Part shown: one piece after another, positions 5,083 through 8,555 of the stretch
How positions within the stretch are numbered: position 1 is the stretch's first letter
Layout: each line of letters begins with the position of its first letter
DNA from: Candidatus Sulfotelmatobacter sp.
Lineage (GTDB): Bacteria; Acidobacteriota; Terriglobia; Terriglobales; Acidobacteriaceae
Reading direction: 5' to 3'
Assembly (NCBI GenBank): GCA_025462865.1
Contig: JAOAPI010000160.1
Coordinates: 1 to 64,000, forward strand
DNA length: 64,000 nucleotides
Notes under the pieces: model-generated
What the model saw: only the letters and a program-made list of their open reading frames with translations
What the model was told of the DNA's origin: nothing
Database searches by the model: none
Translations under genes and position numbers: made by a program

Positions 5083-6024
5083 TCACGGTTGCGGCGGCAC
5101 GGCTAGTCCGCGGCCGTAAACGGCTTCGAGAATTTCGTCGCCACCACGCCTCAGTAGAGTTTCACCGACCGCTTCGCCTAGTTTCTGGGGATCGTGAAGG
5201 TCGCCGTCGCGTGATTCGCGCAGTACCTTCGAGCCGTCGGGATCGGCCACGATTGCATCGAGGTGCAGCTTGCCACCACGGATTTCCGCAAACGCTCCGA
5301 TGGGGACCTGGCAGCCTCCGCCAAGACTGTTCAGCAGAGCGCGTTCGCAAGTCGTGGCGGCGCGGGCGGATGGGTCGTTCAAAAATGCCACGTGCTGTTG
5401 GGTGGAAGAATCACCTTCGCGGATTTCAATGGCGAGAGCTCCCTGTCCGGCGGCGGGGCACATGATTTCAGCAGCGAGAATCTGCTTGATCAATTCCGTC
5501 TTTCCGAGGCGCTTCAGTCCGGCCGCAGCCAGAATGATCGCGTCGTATTCTCCTTGTTCGAGTTTGCGCATACGAGTGTCAACATTGCCACGTAAGGGAT
5601 GAATGTCGAGATCGCGACGGATGGCCTTGAGCTGCGCCTGCCGGCGCAAGCTGGACGTGCCCACGCGAGCCCCCAGTTGCAGATCTTCAATCTTCGAATA
5701 AGATCGCGAGCAGAAGGCATCGCGAGCGTCTTGTCTTTCCGTGATCGCAGCGATTTCGAATCCCCGAGGGAGTTCGGTCGGTAGATCTTTCAGCGAGTGG
5801 ACGGCGAGATCGACGCGTCCAGCGGCGAGCGCTTCCTCGATCTCCTTCGTGAACATTCCTTTTGTCCCGACCATGGCGAGGGCGACATCGGTGATCTTGT
5901 CGCCGGTTGTATGAATGATTTCAATTTGGACTTCGTGGCCGTGGGCGAGTAGAAGTGTCGAGATATGATTAGCCTGCCAGAGGGCGAGTTGGGAGCCTCG
6001 GGAGCCGATGCGGAGTTTAGGCAT
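5083..6024 (-). CDS. hemC: Porphobilinogen deaminase (hydroxymethylbilane synthase)
   Basis: Joins four porphobilinogen units into hydroxymethylbilane. The 313-residue protein starts [18 protein letters not shown], the conserved N-terminus. HSLKDLP (about 76-82) contains the catalytic Asp, and '[11 protein letters not shown]' provides substrate-binding arginines. Cys238 in GGGCQVPIG is the dipyrromethane cofactor attachment site. An upstream in-frame start would add eight residues (MSCPGSRT), but the ATG at 6024 matches the family start. The tRNA gene lies upstream and the DUF4442 gene directly downstream. Confidence 0.96.
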
Positions 6025-6195
6025 CGTGCGCGATCCCGGGCAGGACATTGGACAAAAACGAAAGGCGGCTGGTTAGGCCGCCCTGAGAAATCGGTACTGT
6101 ACCGCGCTTGAGAACCAGTTTCAAAATACCATCTGAAGAAGAGATCGTCAAGAACCCTTCGCGGGTTGTAACGTCCCGTGGATCGCGTAAGCGGG

Positions 6196-6289
6196 CGGAG
6201 AGTAAGGGATTCGAACCCCTCGCGGCTGCGAGCAGCCGCGACCCACGGTTCTCAAGCGCGGCCCAGTACCCACACTGGTAGTACTCTCC
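6196..6289 (-). tRNA. Class II tRNA with selenocysteine/allo-tRNA-like fold, anticodon ambiguous (GAG or UGA)
   Basis: A 94-nt tRNA between hemA and hemC; CCA is not encoded. Stems seen: acceptor GGAGAGTA/TACTCTCC (8 bp), discriminator G, D stem CCAGTG/TACTGG (6 bp, one G-U) with loop TGGG, anticodon stem CCGCG/CGTGG, variable stem TCGCGGCTG/CAGCCGCGA (9 bp, loop CTCG), and T arm GGGG-TTCGAAT-CCCT (4 bp). An alternative 7/5 acceptor/T-stem fold also pairs. The usual T at position 8 is absent, as in selenocysteine tRNAs. The anticodon region is C-TTGAGAA-C: a 7-nt loop (closed by a C-C mismatch) reads GAG, and a 9-nt loop could present UGA. GGAGAG, G73 and the long variable arm are seryl-tRNA synthetase identity features. 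An ordinary tRNA-Ser(UGA) is less likely because the D arm is not the serine type. Confidence 0.8.
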
Positions 6290-6480
6290 GAAGCCCCACT
6301 TGAGCACCACCAGCGTACTACGGCCTCCAGGCCAGATGCTCCGAATCCATTCGAAGTGTGAAGAATTCCGTTCCATTATGGTCTTAGCCCTTTACCATCA
6401 GGGCCGCAGACAAAAGCACATCTACGACAGCACCAACTCCGACCACTCGCATTCTTGATGTCATAGTGTTAGCGATCCGA

Positions 6481-7746
6481 CTATTGAGTCTTCTCCCGCA
6501 GGTTGAACAATCTCCTCACCACATCAATCACGGTCGTGGCCTCAGCCTCTTTCGCAGCCGTTTTCAGCGTAGTGATCGGCGTGTGCATCACTTTGTTGAT
6601 GATGCCACGGGTCAGGGCTTCAACCGCCATCTCCTGGTCCGGCGTGAGCGGGCCCATGCGGCTGCGCACCCGGTCAATTTCTGCCTGCCGGATCGTTTCT
6701 AAATGATCCTGTAACGACACAATCGTCGGCACCACATCCAGCGTTTGCAGTCTGGCCTCAAAGCGCTCGACTTCGCTGGTGATGATGGCTTCGGCGAGTT
6801 CCGCTTCCTTGCTCCGGTCGGCGACGTGGCTGCTGACGGCTTGTTGCAGGTCGTCAATGTCGTAAGCGAATATCCCGTCTAGCTTGGCCATCTCGAGCGA
6901 AACGTCACGAGGCACGGCGATATCGATAAAGAACATGGGCCGGTTCTTGCGGCGGGCCAGGAACTGCTCTCCATGTTCGCGGCGAAAAATGGCGTGGGGC
7001 GCACCGGTGGAGGTGATCACAATATCCGCCCGGTCGCAATTCTCGTACAAGTCGTCGAACTTGATGGCCTGACCGCTGAACTTCTGCGCCAGTCCGATAG
7101 CGCGGTCGTAAGTGCGGTTGGCGACAAAGATCGATGCGCAACCGTGGGCCATCAGGTGACGCGCCGCAAGCTCGCTCATCTTTCCAGCGCCCACAATAAA
7201 AACATTCTTGCCCTGCAGCGTGCCGAAAATCTTTTTCGCCAGCTCCACCGCAACCGAAGCAATGGAAACTGATGACGTACCCACAGCAGTTTCGCTGCGC
7301 ACACGTTTAGCAACGGCAAAGGCTCGAGTGAAAAGGCGATCAAGCTGTCCGCGCACCGAACCTACGGCGCGGGCAGTTGCATAAGCTTCTTTAACCTGCC
7401 CCAGGATCTGCGCTTCGCCAACTACCATTGAATCCAGGCTCGAAGCTACGCGGAAGAGGTGCCGCACCGCATCTTTCTCGCGAAACTCGTAGAGATGTGT
7501 GTCCAATTCTTCCGAAGTCAAATGAAAATGGTCATGCAGAAAACCGCGCAGGTCGGCAGACCCGTTCGTCGTATGCGTGATCATTTCGACCCGGTTGCAA
7601 GTAGAAATAACTATCCCCTCCTCGACGCCTGGATGGGCCGTGAGATCGCGGCAGCAATCCGGCAGGCGCGACTCCGGAATCGAAAGGCGCTCGCGCAGTT
7701 CAAGCGGCGCGCTCTTGTGATTCACTCCAATGAGCTGATATCTCAT
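6481..7746 (-). CDS. hemA: Glutamyl-tRNA reductase
   Basis: First committed step of C5-pathway tetrapyrrole synthesis: NADPH reduction of glutamyl-tRNA to glutamate-1-semialdehyde. The 421-residue protein starts MRYQLIGVNHKSAP. The catalytic nucleophile Cys50 lies in ISTCNRVEM, the NADPH-binding GAGKMSELAARHL is near residue 190, and a C-terminal dimerisation helix is present. The ATG at 7746 matches the family; a longer frame to 7896 reads through the end of the upstream gene. Start and upstream stop overlap as ATGA, so it is coupled to the HemX/CcsA-like gene. Confidence 0.96.
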   Translation of the reverse strand: MRYQLIGVNHKSAPLELRERLSIPESRLPDCCRDLTAHPGVEEGIVISTCNRVEMITHTTNGSADLRGFLHDHFHLTSEELDTHLYEFREKDAVRHLFRVASSLDSMVVGEAQILGQVKEAYATARAVGSVRGQLDRLFTRAFAVAKRVRSETAVGTSSVSIASVAVELAKKIFGTLQGKNVFIVGAGKMSELAARHLMAHGCASIFVANRTYDRAIGLAQKFSGQAIKFDDLYENCDRADIVITSTGAPHAIFRREHGEQFLARRKNRPMFFIDIAVPRDVSLEMAKLDGIFAYDIDDLQQAVSSHVADRSKEAELAEAIITSEVERFEARLQTLDVVPTIVSLQDHLETIRQAEIDRVRSRMGPLTPDQEMAVEALTRGIINKVMHTPITTLKTAAKEAEATTVIDVVRRLFNLREKTQ

Positions 7747-8555
7747 AAAGCCGCAAACCTGTGGATGGTCGAAAAATAGTTCGCGGCCCAGGCCACGATA
7801 GCGGCCACAAACGCAAAGGTCGCGAGCACGGCCGCTCGACGTCCACGCCATCCCGAGTTCCAGCGGGTAAAGACCATGATCATGTAGACGACCCACATCA
7901 GGATCGACAACAGAATTTTCGGATCGGCAAAATCCACGTGCCCGTAAGTTGACATCGCCACGATCGAGCCGGTGATCAGACCGAGCGTCATGAACGGAAA
8001 GCCCAGCAGCAACGAGCGGTAGCCGATCTGGTCAATGACTTCAAGCGCAGGCAGAAACGAAATCATTCTGCTTGGCTTCTTGGCTTTCAGCCGGCGCTCT
8101 TGTAGCAGGTAAATCAGGCTGGCGCCAAAGCTGAGCACCAGAGCCGCGTATCCGGTGAAAATCAGGATAATGTGCGCGACCAGCCATCCTTTATGCTGCA
8201 CAAACGCTGTCAACAGCACCGGTTGCTCGTCGACGGCGGCAACGAACGTTAGAAAAAATACAATGGGAAACACAACTACGCCGGGCGAAGTGGTCTTGTA
8301 AATGGCGCAGATGATCATGAAAAACGTCATTGAAAAAAACGCCAGCAGCGACTCTCCATTATGCAAGGATGCCCAGACGACGTGTCCGGATAGGAAGAGT
8401 TCAACCAGCGAGACAAAATGGAAAACCATTCCCAGGCTGGCGGCGCGTAGCGCGATGCGGCTGAACAGATCGCTGGTGCGGGTCAGGGCAAAGAAGGCGT
8501 AGACGAGCCCCACGAGGTAGCAACTCAACGCGAAGCGCAGCCAAAGCAATGACAT
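7743..8555 (-). CDS. HemX/CcsA-family cytochrome c assembly membrane protein
   Basis: A 270-residue polytopic protein with about eight hydrophobic segments. Conserved histidines lie in loops, for example VFHFVSL (near 45) and 'VAHIILIFTGYAALVLSFGASLIYLL' near 125-150 (CcsA core). The tryptophan-rich WWD haem-handling motif of true CcsA is not obvious; the matching loop reads YGHVDFADPK. This fits HemX, which sits before hemA in several phyla and affects GluTR level. It is the first gene of the tetrapyrrole operon. The 284-base gap upstream (8556-8839) holds no other gene; it should contain divergent promoters, none of which I can define well. Confidence 0.85.
   Translation of the reverse strand: MSLLWLRFALSCYLVGLVYAFFALTRTSDLFSRIALRAASLGMVFHFVSLVELFLSGHVVWASLHNGESLLAFFSMTFFMIICAIYKTTSPGVVVFPIVFFLTFVAAVDEQPVLLTAFVQHKGWLVAHIILIFTGYAALVLSFGASLIYLLQERRLKAKKPSRMISFLPALEVIDQIGYRSLLLGFPFMTLGLITGSIVAMSTYGHVDFADPKILLSILMWVVYMIMVFTRWNSGWRGRRAAVLATFAFVAAIVAWAANYFSTIHRFAAL

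What the first reader, a model, noticed from the sequence alone, without database searches (positions are those of the whole stretch)
6196..6289. Selenocysteine/allo-tRNA-like fold without a UCA anticodon
Seen: a 94-nt tRNA pairs as an 8-bp acceptor, 4-bp T stem, 6-bp D stem with a 4-nt loop, and a 9-bp variable stem, with no T at position 8. These are selenocysteine-tRNA features, yet the anticodon loop TTGAGAA (flanked by a C-C mismatch) reads GAG, or UGA if the loop is 9 nt. Established: allo-tRNAs with 8/4 branches and odd anticodons have been described from Acidobacteria and others, and the seryl-tRNA synthetase recognises the acceptor and long variable arm. Inference: if charged with Ser and reading CUC/CUU, it would be a missense suppressor; it could instead be a regulatory RNA.
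Basis: partly seen in the sequence, partly recalled or inferred. Interest (0 to 1): 0.85.

Follow-up and report, generated by a model that had tools for sequence, protein, structure and literature searches.

The report
Missense tRNA with antisense-RNA partner
This odd tRNA gene, which looks built to put the wrong amino acid into proteins, comes with its own small antisense RNA that covers its anticodon; the two change together across relatives, which suggests an all-RNA on/off switch or poison-antidote pair that this search did not find described.

Summary
At 6196-6289 (minus strand) lies an 8/4 allo-tRNA with loop TTGAGAA (GAG anticodon), between hemA and hemC. It is an extra tRNA: the genome also has normal Leu(GAG), Ser(UGA) and Sec(UCA) tRNAs.

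Downstream come a sigma70-like promoter, 24 nt complementary (22 of 24) to the tRNA's D/anticodon arm, and a terminator: a predicted antisense RNA of about 60 nt. Among 76 group-A loci (68 distinct tRNAs; window and five duplicates included), 69 hold such an antisense above their own shuffles. It tracks the anticodon: loop columns pair in 96.6% of cells in 58 loci, against at most 78.8% in 1000 permutations. At fixed genomic sites the anticodon switches (GCG/GCC/GUC) and the antisense with it. No confidently read anticodon is a Ser one. A second, unrelated tRNA type (Ala-type G3:U70 body, Asp anticodon) shows the same arrangement in all 10 loci examined.

Best reading: a Ser-charged missense tRNA held silent by a dedicated antisense RNA, acting as an all-RNA toxin-antitoxin or conditional mistranslation device. 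The pairing is strongly supported by sequence; expression, charging and toxicity are inferred.

The parts
6196..6289 (-). allo-tRNA: 8/4 branch, 6-bp D stem with 4-nt loop, loop TTGAGAA (GAG anticodon), long variable arm, discriminator G, no encoded CCA
   Evidence: fold z -3.2; tRNA-Sec model 41.4 bits; family covariation 25 of 31 pairs; coordinates checked
6093..6116 (-). antisense segment GGTTCTCAAGCGCGGTACAGTACC, complementary (22 of 24) to tRNA residues 20-43 (D stem 3' strand and anticodon arm)
   Evidence: covariation
6146..6151 (-). -35 box TTGACG of the predicted antisense-RNA promoter
   Evidence: read; across the family promoter score >=8 in 56 of 63 vs 3 of 63 shuffled
6123..6128 (-). 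-10 box TATTTT of the same promoter, 17-nt spacer
6064..6082 (-). intrinsic terminator stem-loop of the antisense RNA (GGCGGC CTAACCA GCCGCC)
   Evidence: terminator-like hairpin plus T-run in 62 of 63 family members vs 12 of 63 shuffled
6054..6063 (-). T-run of the terminator
6176..6187 (-). tRNA trailer, complementary to tRNA residues 42-53 (anticodon 3' strand / variable arm)
   Evidence: 11.2; 0 of 50 shuffles as good; coordinates
6291..6304 (-). tRNA leader CTCAAGTGGGGCTT, complementary to residues 26-39 in sister loci of the hemA-hemC group; weak
   Evidence: 8.6-9.4 in sisters, 4-12% of shuffles as good; the window's own best leader match is another segment, -28..-13, with residues 4-19
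5083..6024 (-). hemC, downstream neighbour
   Evidence: ORF; start ATG 6022-6024; gene name from my reading of the sequence, not from a family search
6481..7896 (-). hemA, upstream neighbour (ORF as listed; the start used for the homologue search was 7746)
   Evidence: ORF; 37 loci with a relative; gene name from my reading

Best explanation
The locus encodes a serine-accepting missense tRNA (anticodon GAG, Leu codons CUC/CUU). A separate small antisense RNA, made just downstream from its own sigma70-type promoter and ended by an intrinsic terminator, base-pairs with the D/anticodon arm and covers the anticodon. With the antisense RNA in excess, the tRNA is kept out of the ribosome or destroyed. 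When the antisense RNA is lost, or the tRNA is induced, the tRNA puts Ser at Leu codons. Leader and trailer sequences that can pair with the tRNA's interior suggest that the primary transcript is also partly inert until processed, like hok mRNA. I think the module works as an all-RNA toxin-antitoxin, or a conditional mistranslation switch. Shown by sequence: tRNA fold, antisense complementarity, promoter and terminator signals, co-change of anticodon and antisense, anticodon switching at fixed sites. Inferred: expression, serylation, duplex formation in cells, toxicity.
For: (1) Antisense in 69 of 76 loci above the best of 10 shuffles of their own downstream DNA.
(2) 58 of 68 distinct loci counted for covariation: columns 32-38 paired 96.6% vs permuted mean 74.2%, max 78.8% of 1000; 94% in register vs 35-42% slid by 1-3; 33 divergent representatives give 96.5% vs max 81.0%.
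(3) Promoter 56 of 63 vs 3 shuffled, the -10 ending a median 5 nt before the antisense; terminator 62 of 63 vs 12 shuffled.
(4) Anticodon switches at shared sites: below rpoD (10 loci, GCG/GCC/GUC) and a second site (11 loci, GCG/GUC/GCC).
(5) No confidently assigned anticodon of 68 is a Ser one, while the window's body is closest to own tRNA-Ser.
(6) A second scaffold with Ala identity (G3:U70, A73 in 10 of 10) and Asp anticodons has the antisense above 20 own shuffles in 10 of 10 loci examined, of 12 fetched.
(7) Of the ARAGORN tRNA genes scanned in three genomes (50, 46, 48), only 1, 3 and 2 have an antisense >=13; a seventh was a partial Rfam hit that ARAGORN missed. Six of these seven have the Ala-type scaffold.
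(8) L171, with no antisense in the 193 nt available, has an acceptor mismatch, while L111 keeps the antisense without a tRNA in the gap.
(9) Published: two S. bohemicum allo-tRNAs put Ser at Leu codons CUC and UUA in E. coli (PMC7609411, passages read).
Against: No RNA data: transcription, charging and toxicity are untested. 18 of the 68 distinct tRNAs have U (16) or A (2), not G, at the discriminator, which is not classical Ser identity. In the window's own group a C-C mismatch closes the loop, so the GAG register is less sure there; a UGA reading would make it a cognate Ser tRNA. Seven of 76 loci do not beat their shuffles; L202, L204 and L214 still show a visible imperfect antisense, L208 is cut by an assembly gap, and L171, L190 and L192 look lost or decayed. 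The leader/trailer pairing is weaker, and the precursor fold test is only suggestive: acceptor stem formed in 36 of 68 vs 54 of 68 with shuffled flanks. Duplex energies alone do not always single out the cognate partner (31 of 49 tRNAs find at least one better small RNA, mostly expected from related loci). Nothing here separates toxin-antitoxin from benign regulated mistranslation.
Confidence: 0.7

Rival explanations
1. Conditional (adaptive) mistranslation: the tRNA is a stress- or nutrient-controlled missense tRNA and the antisense RNA only sets a threshold; it is not an addiction module.
For: 9 of 66 upstream regions have a CRP-like TGTGA-N6-TCACA with at most 1 mismatch (0.16 expected). 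Of the 15 with at most 2 mismatches (2.0 expected), 12 are centred -41.5 to -43.5 from the predicted start, the usual place for an activator (place recalled). The tRNA promoters show a -10 (TANAAT in 29 of 66, 0.7 expected) but no clear -35, whereas the antisense has a full sigma70-type promoter.
Against: Only a minority of loci have the site and the five distinct hemA-hemC tRNAs have none. No conserved partner gene seen beside 20 loci read by eye; anticodons change freely.
Confidence: 0.3
2. Plain allo-tRNA suppressor as described by Mukai et al.; the downstream complementarity is incidental or an inverted repeat of DNA (integration site, transposon end).
For: Allo-tRNAs are known from Acidobacteria and are active in E. 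coli (PMC7609411 passages). The 39 group-B matches, many of them UAU-type allo-tRNAs, have no clear antisense.
Against: Promoter, terminator and co-varying complementarity in nearly all group-A members; 94% paired in register vs 35-42% slid; same layout on a second, unrelated tRNA scaffold.
Confidence: 0.05
3. The small RNA is the real regulator of other mRNAs, and the tRNA-like RNA is its sponge.
For: Near-perfect pairing fits a sponge as well. Some allo-tRNAs could not be charged by E. coli enzymes in vitro (PMC7609411 passages), so not all need be translated.
Against: A sponge needs no covarying 12-bp cloverleaf, Ser- or Ala-type acceptor ends, or kept anticodon loop. The changing anticodon segment would change the small RNA's targets each time.
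Confidence: 0.08
4. Degenerate tRNA-Sec or tRNA-Ser pseudogene.
For: Below the tRNA-Sec cut-off; C-C mismatch at the base of the loop in the hemA-hemC group.
Against: 97-99% identical over the tRNA in six other loci, five of them named, while the flanking gap DNA differs; family-wide covariation; true tRNA-Sec present elsewhere.
Confidence: 0.02

Closest known systems
Allo-tRNAs (Mukai et al. 2017, not held; read through passages of the review PMC7609411)
   Same: 8/4 branch, long variable arm, Ser-type body with non-Ser anticodon (GCG and GUC are among the commonest listed, CUC-reading was tested), Acidobacteria; Ser insertion at Leu codons shown in E. coli for S. bohemicum allo-tRNAs
   Different: A dedicated antisense RNA with its own promoter and terminator, co-varying with the anticodon; leader and trailer complementary to the tRNA interior. 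The review passages I read mention no antisense RNA.
All-RNA toxin-antitoxin modules: CreTA (PMC8501985, abstract read), SdsR/RyeA (recalled)
   Same: Toxin and antitoxin are both RNA, and translation is the target; CreT acts through tRNA
   Different: CreT sequesters a rare tRNA and is repressed at transcription by CreA with the CRISPR effector. Here the presumed toxin is itself a tRNA, and the antisense pairs with it directly.
Type I toxin-antitoxin hok/Sok (recalled)
   Same: Inert precursor by internal pairing, antisense RNA from its own promoter, mature form is the target
   Different: hok is an mRNA for a toxic peptide; here there is no toxic peptide, and the small RNA is encoded downstream on the same strand rather than opposite its target
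tRNA-Sec (Rfam RF01852)
   Same: Fold and D arm; 41.4 bits to the model
   Different: Below the gathering score of 47; anticodon GAG not UCA; a better tRNA-Sec (65.6 bits, UCA) exists in the genome

Membership tests
Allo-tRNA (8/4 class) | 12-bp branch split 8/4 | tested here: met
   8th acceptor pair formed in 48 of 49 distinct rows, both sides changed in 19; the competing 7/5 pair formed in 15 of 34
Allo-tRNA (8/4 class) | Ser-type body with non-Ser anticodon | tested here: met
   best five alignments are own tRNA-Ser; GAG anticodon. Discriminator G in the window; in the family G 50, U 16, A 2 of 68
Allo-tRNA (8/4 class) | Charged with Ser and active in translation | not testable with these tools
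   shown for S. bohemicum allo-tRNAs in E. coli according to PMC7609411 passages, not for this gene
tRNA-Sec | Score over the Rfam cut-off and UCA anticodon | tested here: not met
   41.4 vs 47 bits; GAG; true Sec tRNA elsewhere
Toxin-antitoxin, RNA/RNA (type VIII-like; type name recalled) | Antitoxin RNA specifically neutralises toxin RNA | tested here: inconclusive
   specific pairing and co-variation; no expression or toxicity data
Toxin-antitoxin, RNA/RNA (type VIII-like; type name recalled) | Toxin kills or arrests the cell without the antitoxin | not testable with these tools
   indirect only: L171, with no antisense in the 193 nt available, is mutated in its acceptor stem; antisense alone is tolerated in L111
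Toxin-antitoxin, RNA/RNA (type VIII-like; type name recalled) | Patchy, multi-copy, strain-variable module | tested here: met
   5 of 32 named hemA-hemC gaps hold it; at least 33 of 298 order genomes by my own count of the list, several with 2-5 copies
CreTA | CRISPR-like CreA RNA acting with the CRISPR effector | not tested
   no search for cas genes was made

The most novel reading that the evidence does not exclude
A new kind of all-RNA toxin-antitoxin (or abortive-infection) module in which the toxin is a missense tRNA charged by a synthetase that ignores the anticodon (SerRS for the 8/4 class, AlaRS for a convergent 7/5 class), and the antitoxin is a short-lived antisense RNA that masks the anticodon. 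Anticodons drift freely because any wrong codon is toxic, and the antisense must follow each change.
Probability: 0.45. Interest if true: 0.95.

Novelty: categorically new. Interest (0 to 1): 0.9.

Why it matters
Natural missense tRNAs (allo-tRNAs) have had no agreed role. A dedicated anticodon-covering antisense RNA makes their function directly testable: it explains how a cell could carry a tRNA that would corrupt its proteome, and turns an oddity into a switch. If the toxin-antitoxin reading holds, it is a poison-antidote pair without any protein, and mistranslation becomes a natural toxin mechanism. It also means that some genes that ARAGORN calls ordinary tRNA-Asp or tRNA-Arg (the Ala-type class) are probably hidden missense tRNAs, which matters for genome annotation and codon-usage work. 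The pairs may also be useful as ready-made regulated suppressor tRNAs.

Tried and rejected
Heme link: the tRNA sits between hemA and hemC, so I asked whether it was tied to glutamyl-tRNA and heme synthesis. Relatives sit at other sites (below rpoD, beside what I read as xseA and glutamate dehydrogenase, and others), so the hemA-hemC site looks like chance.

Mobile element: one 201-nt query (from L158) found nothing in the plasmid and phage collections, and one exact viral-contig pattern found nothing. Flanking ORFs of 20 of 76 loci, named by eye without a family search, show no shared partner gene apart from the repeated rpoD site. That script picked the longest frame, which was sometimes the antisense of the real gene.

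Other acidobacteria: R2 at E<=1e-8 over 396 phylum genomes hit 4 genomes. Three are in the window's family. The fourth (G487, L252) reads as a tRNA-Sec (loop CTTCAAA) without antisense. In the order sample no genome of the second family (14 genomes) has a match over 43.3 bits.

CRP-like sites with up to 3 mismatches are not very informative (24 observed vs 16 expected); at most 1-2 mismatches are.

Other odd tRNAs of the genome (L070, L071, L074, L075) have no antisense.

Cognate versus non-cognate duplex energies (-42.8 vs -26.3 kcal/mol, 49 loci) support specificity, but 31 of 49 tRNAs find at least one small RNA that binds better, mostly expected from related loci. I rely on the covariation test instead.

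A mistake mended: my first test of the 7/5 alternative paired an insertion column and says nothing; one search is the right test.

Literature: searches list no paper that I recognised as describing an antisense RNA against a tRNA gene of this kind (listings only; I opened three papers: passages of PMC7609411 and PMC9976931, the abstract of PMC8501985; a term search in PMC7590224 found nothing). The primary paper (Mukai 2017) is not held, so 'not in print' is limited to those searches.

Group split: groups A (76) and B (39) were split by me by eye, on the D-arm motif and on the UAU anticodon or tandem arrays with encoded CCA, after seeing the antisense results. It is not a clean bit-score cut: L188 in B scores 66.0 bits with R2, while L162 and L248 in A score 56.5 and 46.9. 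Five of the 76 are the same locus met in two collections.

Full report
What is there. On the minus strand at 6289-6196 lies a 94-nt RNA gene between hemA (6481-7896) and hemC (5083-6024), same strand; these gene names are my reading. It folds as an 8/4 cloverleaf with a Sec-like D arm (MFE -47.5 kcal/mol, 0 of 200 shuffles as good). It matches tRNA-Sec at 41.4 bits, below the cut-off of 47, and is missed by ARAGORN in bacterial mode and by Rfam at gathering scores. The anticodon loop is TTGAGAA, hence GAG, with a C-C mismatch below it. The discriminator is G and CCA is not encoded.

It is an extra tRNA. The genome (6.08 Mb, 98.45% complete) has Leu UAA, CAA, UAG, GAG and CAG; Ser UGA, GCU (three hits), CGA and GGA; and a true tRNA-Sec (UCA, 65.6 bits). 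One SerRS passes the cut-off. The body aligns best with own tRNA-Ser genes, the top five all Ser.

Relatives. HemA as a query brought 37 loci from named records, mostly Candidatus Sulfotelmatobacter and other acidobacterial MAGs. Of the 32 with both hemA and hemC, 5 (L109, L113, L115, L122, L130) hold the tRNA at 97-99% identity; in 15 of 32 the gap is under 90 nt and the tRNA is absent. L078 (G006) carries it too, but it equals L115 and is probably the same genome.

The antisense. Reading the gaps side by side showed a constant block after the tRNA: a TTGAC-type -35 and a TAnnnT-type -10, 24 nt complementary to the tRNA's D/anticodon arm, and a GC hairpin with a T-run. In G077, a different genus, at a different site, the tRNA has anticodon GCC and the downstream segment is perfectly complementary to that tRNA over 21 nt. 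A second G077 locus has GCG and its own matching antisense. This co-change was the turning point.

A family survey. Model R1 (8 sequences) gave matches in 38 of 398 family genomes at E<=3e-4; all 51 listed matches were read. Model R2, from the resulting 56-row alignment, was run over 298 order genomes and 396 phylum genomes. Of one search's list, which is capped and also holds many ordinary tRNAs near 40 bits, I read most matches above about 43 bits. In all I read 115 matches: 56 and 59. I divided them by eye into group A (76 loci, 68 distinct tRNAs, D arm CCAGTGGGTACTGG or similar; five loci are met twice) and group B (39: many UAU allo-tRNAs, tandem arrays, some tRNA-Sec- or tRNA-Ser-like). 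In group A the downstream 250 nt hold a complementary segment above the best of 10 shuffles in 69 of 76. The seven exceptions are L171, L190, L192, L202, L204, L208 and L214; of these, L202, L204 and L214 have a visible imperfect antisense and L208 is cut by an assembly gap. Group B scores (6.6-12.6) lie around shuffle level. In group A the segment begins a median 60 nt after the tRNA and covers about residues 18-42. By my count of the list, at least 33 of 298 genomes carry group A, all in the window's family.

Is it a transcript, and does it co-vary? Of the 63 distinct loci with a score of 11 or more (5 of 68 left out), 56 have a promoter score of 8 or more (3 when shuffled), with the -10 ending a median 5 nt before the antisense. 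A terminator-like hairpin follows in 62 of 63 (12 shuffled). For covariation I counted 58 of 68 distinct loci: L171, L190, L192, L208 and L212 were left out beforehand, and L163, L201, L204, L207 and L214 were skipped for gapped or weak matches. Positions 32-38 pair in 96.6% of cells; permuting the antisense among loci gives 74.2% on average and 78.8% at most in 1000. Sliding by 1-3 nt drops the paired fraction from 94% to 35-42%. With 33 divergent representatives the numbers are 96.5% vs at most 81.0%. At position 35, C-G, T-A, A-T and T-G pairs all occur.

Anticodon turnover. As counted by script on 68 distinct tRNAs, anticodons are GCG 18, GCC 15, GUC 13, GAG 7, UUC 3, GAU 3, AUC 2 and a few single ones. 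The script misplaced the loop in some (L168, L173, L185, L186, L190, L212), four of which I corrected by eye to GAG, GCG, CUC and GAC. None of the confidently assigned anticodons is a Ser one. Loci group by flanking DNA (single linkage): hemA-hemC (11, all GAG), below rpoD (10: GCG, GCC, GUC), a second site (11: GCG, GUC, GCC), two of five, one of four and two pairs; the rest are single. In the rpoD group the tRNA begins 158-305 nt after the rpoD match in 8 of 10, but 462 nt (L179) and 1138 nt (L160) in two, so those may be separate insertions. The anticodon therefore changes at shared sites and the antisense changes with it. The codon read is not what is conserved; the mismatch between body and anticodon, and the cover over it, are.

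A second scaffold. As a control I scanned ordinary tRNA genes: of 62 distinct ones, 61 score at most 12.5, and one in the window's own genome scores 19 (L024, called tRNA-Asp GTC). Its relatives form a second class: canonical 7/5 tRNAs with G3:U70 and A73 in 10 of 10, alanine identity elements listed for bacteria in PMC9976931 (passages), and an acceptor end that in L263-L265 equals that of the genome's own tRNA-Ala(GGC). Their anticodons are called GUC or AUC (Asp), and 10 of 10 have an antisense above 20 own shuffles. These 10 include L024 itself; two more fetched loci (L261, L266), where ARAGORN found no tRNA, were not examined. The search query contained the antisense, but for L262-L265 only the tRNA part matched, so for those four the antisense was not selected for. 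A wider scan of the ARAGORN tRNA genes at all Rfam tRNA hits of three genomes (50, 46 and 48 genes; 8 and 1 with under 100 nt of flank in the first two) found only 1, 3 and 2 with antisense of 13 or more. A seventh (L362) was a partial Rfam hit that ARAGORN missed. ARAGORN also misses the group-A tRNAs, which are not in these numbers. Six of the seven (L024, L337, L338, L350, L359, L362) have this Ala-type scaffold with G3:U70 and A73, two of them with Arg anticodon GCG. The other, L329, has an Arg-like body and an unusual loop. In PMC9976931 the tRNA-Ser anticodon is said to play no role in charging, and the bacterial Ala set lists no anticodon element (passages), so the anticodon is free to be 'wrong'.

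Precursor. In the 56 loci, the trailer (+2..+14) pairs with residues about 42-53 and the leader (-15..-1) with about 24-38 in many: mean 9.5 and 8.1 vs 6.3 for shuffles in both cases. Mature tRNAs fold with an intact acceptor in 66 of 68; with native flanks 36 of 68; with shuffled flanks 54 of 68. This fits a partly inert precursor, but it is a weak test. The tRNA promoters carry TANAAT near -27 in 29 of 66 (0.7 expected) without a clear -35. Nine of 66 have a CRP-like site with at most 1 mismatch (0.16 expected); 12 of the 15 with at most 2 mismatches are centred -41.5 to -43.5 from the predicted start.

Mechanism. I read this as a missense tRNA that would put Ser (or Ala, in class 2) at wrong codons, kept silent by an antisense RNA on its anticodon arm. 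Patchy presence, several copies per genome, no protein partner seen, free anticodon drift, one orphan antisense (L111), and decay of the clearest orphan tRNA (L171) fit a toxin-antitoxin. CRP-like control in a subset fits regulated mistranslation. Both share the same core, which is what I score at 0.7. The split between them is open.

Known or not. Allo-tRNAs are known; two from S. bohemicum insert Ser at Leu codons in E. coli, and a UAU group was guessed to belong to transposons or toxin-antitoxins (PMC7609411 passages). RNA/RNA toxin-antitoxins exist: CreTA (PMC8501985 abstract); SdsR/RyeA recalled. A tRNA with its own anticodon-masking antisense gene appeared in none of my search listings. 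The primary 2017 paper could not be read.

Noticed in passing
L024:1501-1574 (own genome, C91:18509), L255-L260, L262-L265, L338, L350, L362: Second, canonical-looking tRNA class with Ala identity (G3:U70, A73) but Asp (or, in L338 and L350, Arg) anticodon, each with its own antisense; called tRNA-Asp/Arg by ARAGORN where it finds them.
   Followed up: yes
L329 (G077:C276:47923-47996): tRNA with an Arg-like body (acceptor as in that genome's Arg-CCT) and an odd anticodon loop called Ala-CGC, followed by a 23-nt perfect antisense with promoter- and terminator-like signals: a possible third scaffold.
   Followed up: partly
L170 (G123), downstream of the module: A second copy of the last 44 codons of rpoD lies downstream of the allo-tRNA module (97.7% identical in protein), as if the module or its carrier had inserted at the 3' end of rpoD.
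   Followed up: no
L071 (own genome C35:22838-22944), L075 (C119:4462-4569), L352 (G006:C14:15545-15638): tRNA-like genes with a strongly enlarged anticodon arm; the two own-genome ones are missed by ARAGORN and have no antisense. Introns or giant arms.
   Followed up: no
L194, L219, L220, L222-L226, L228-L232, L234-L236: Mostly UAU-anticodon allo-tRNAs (group B) without antisense; several (L194, L228, L232, L234, L235) have a CCRTGGTGA motif shortly upstream of the tRNA.
   Followed up: no
L238, L239, L242, L243, L244, L246: Tandem pairs of 8/4-like tRNAs with encoded CCA, next to further tRNA-like sequence.
   Followed up: no
window 6017-6376 (-): A 119-aa open frame runs through the tRNA; in the sister loci I looked at by eye the frame stays open upstream of the tRNA. 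Possibly chance.
   Followed up: no
L111, L112, L113, L119 (hemA-hemC gap): The hemA-hemC gap is an insertion hot spot: ORFs with a uracil-DNA-glycosylase-like GQDPYH motif and, in some, a toxin-antitoxin-like small gene pair (both recalled, not searched).
   Followed up: no
L111, end of the hemA-hemC gap: Antisense block kept just before hemC with no allo-tRNA found in the locus: an orphan antisense.
   Followed up: partly
upstream of L144, L157, L162, L163, L201, L207, L218, L221: CRP/FNR-like palindrome at about -63..-67 from the allo-tRNA, i.e. near -42 of the predicted start.
   Followed up: partly
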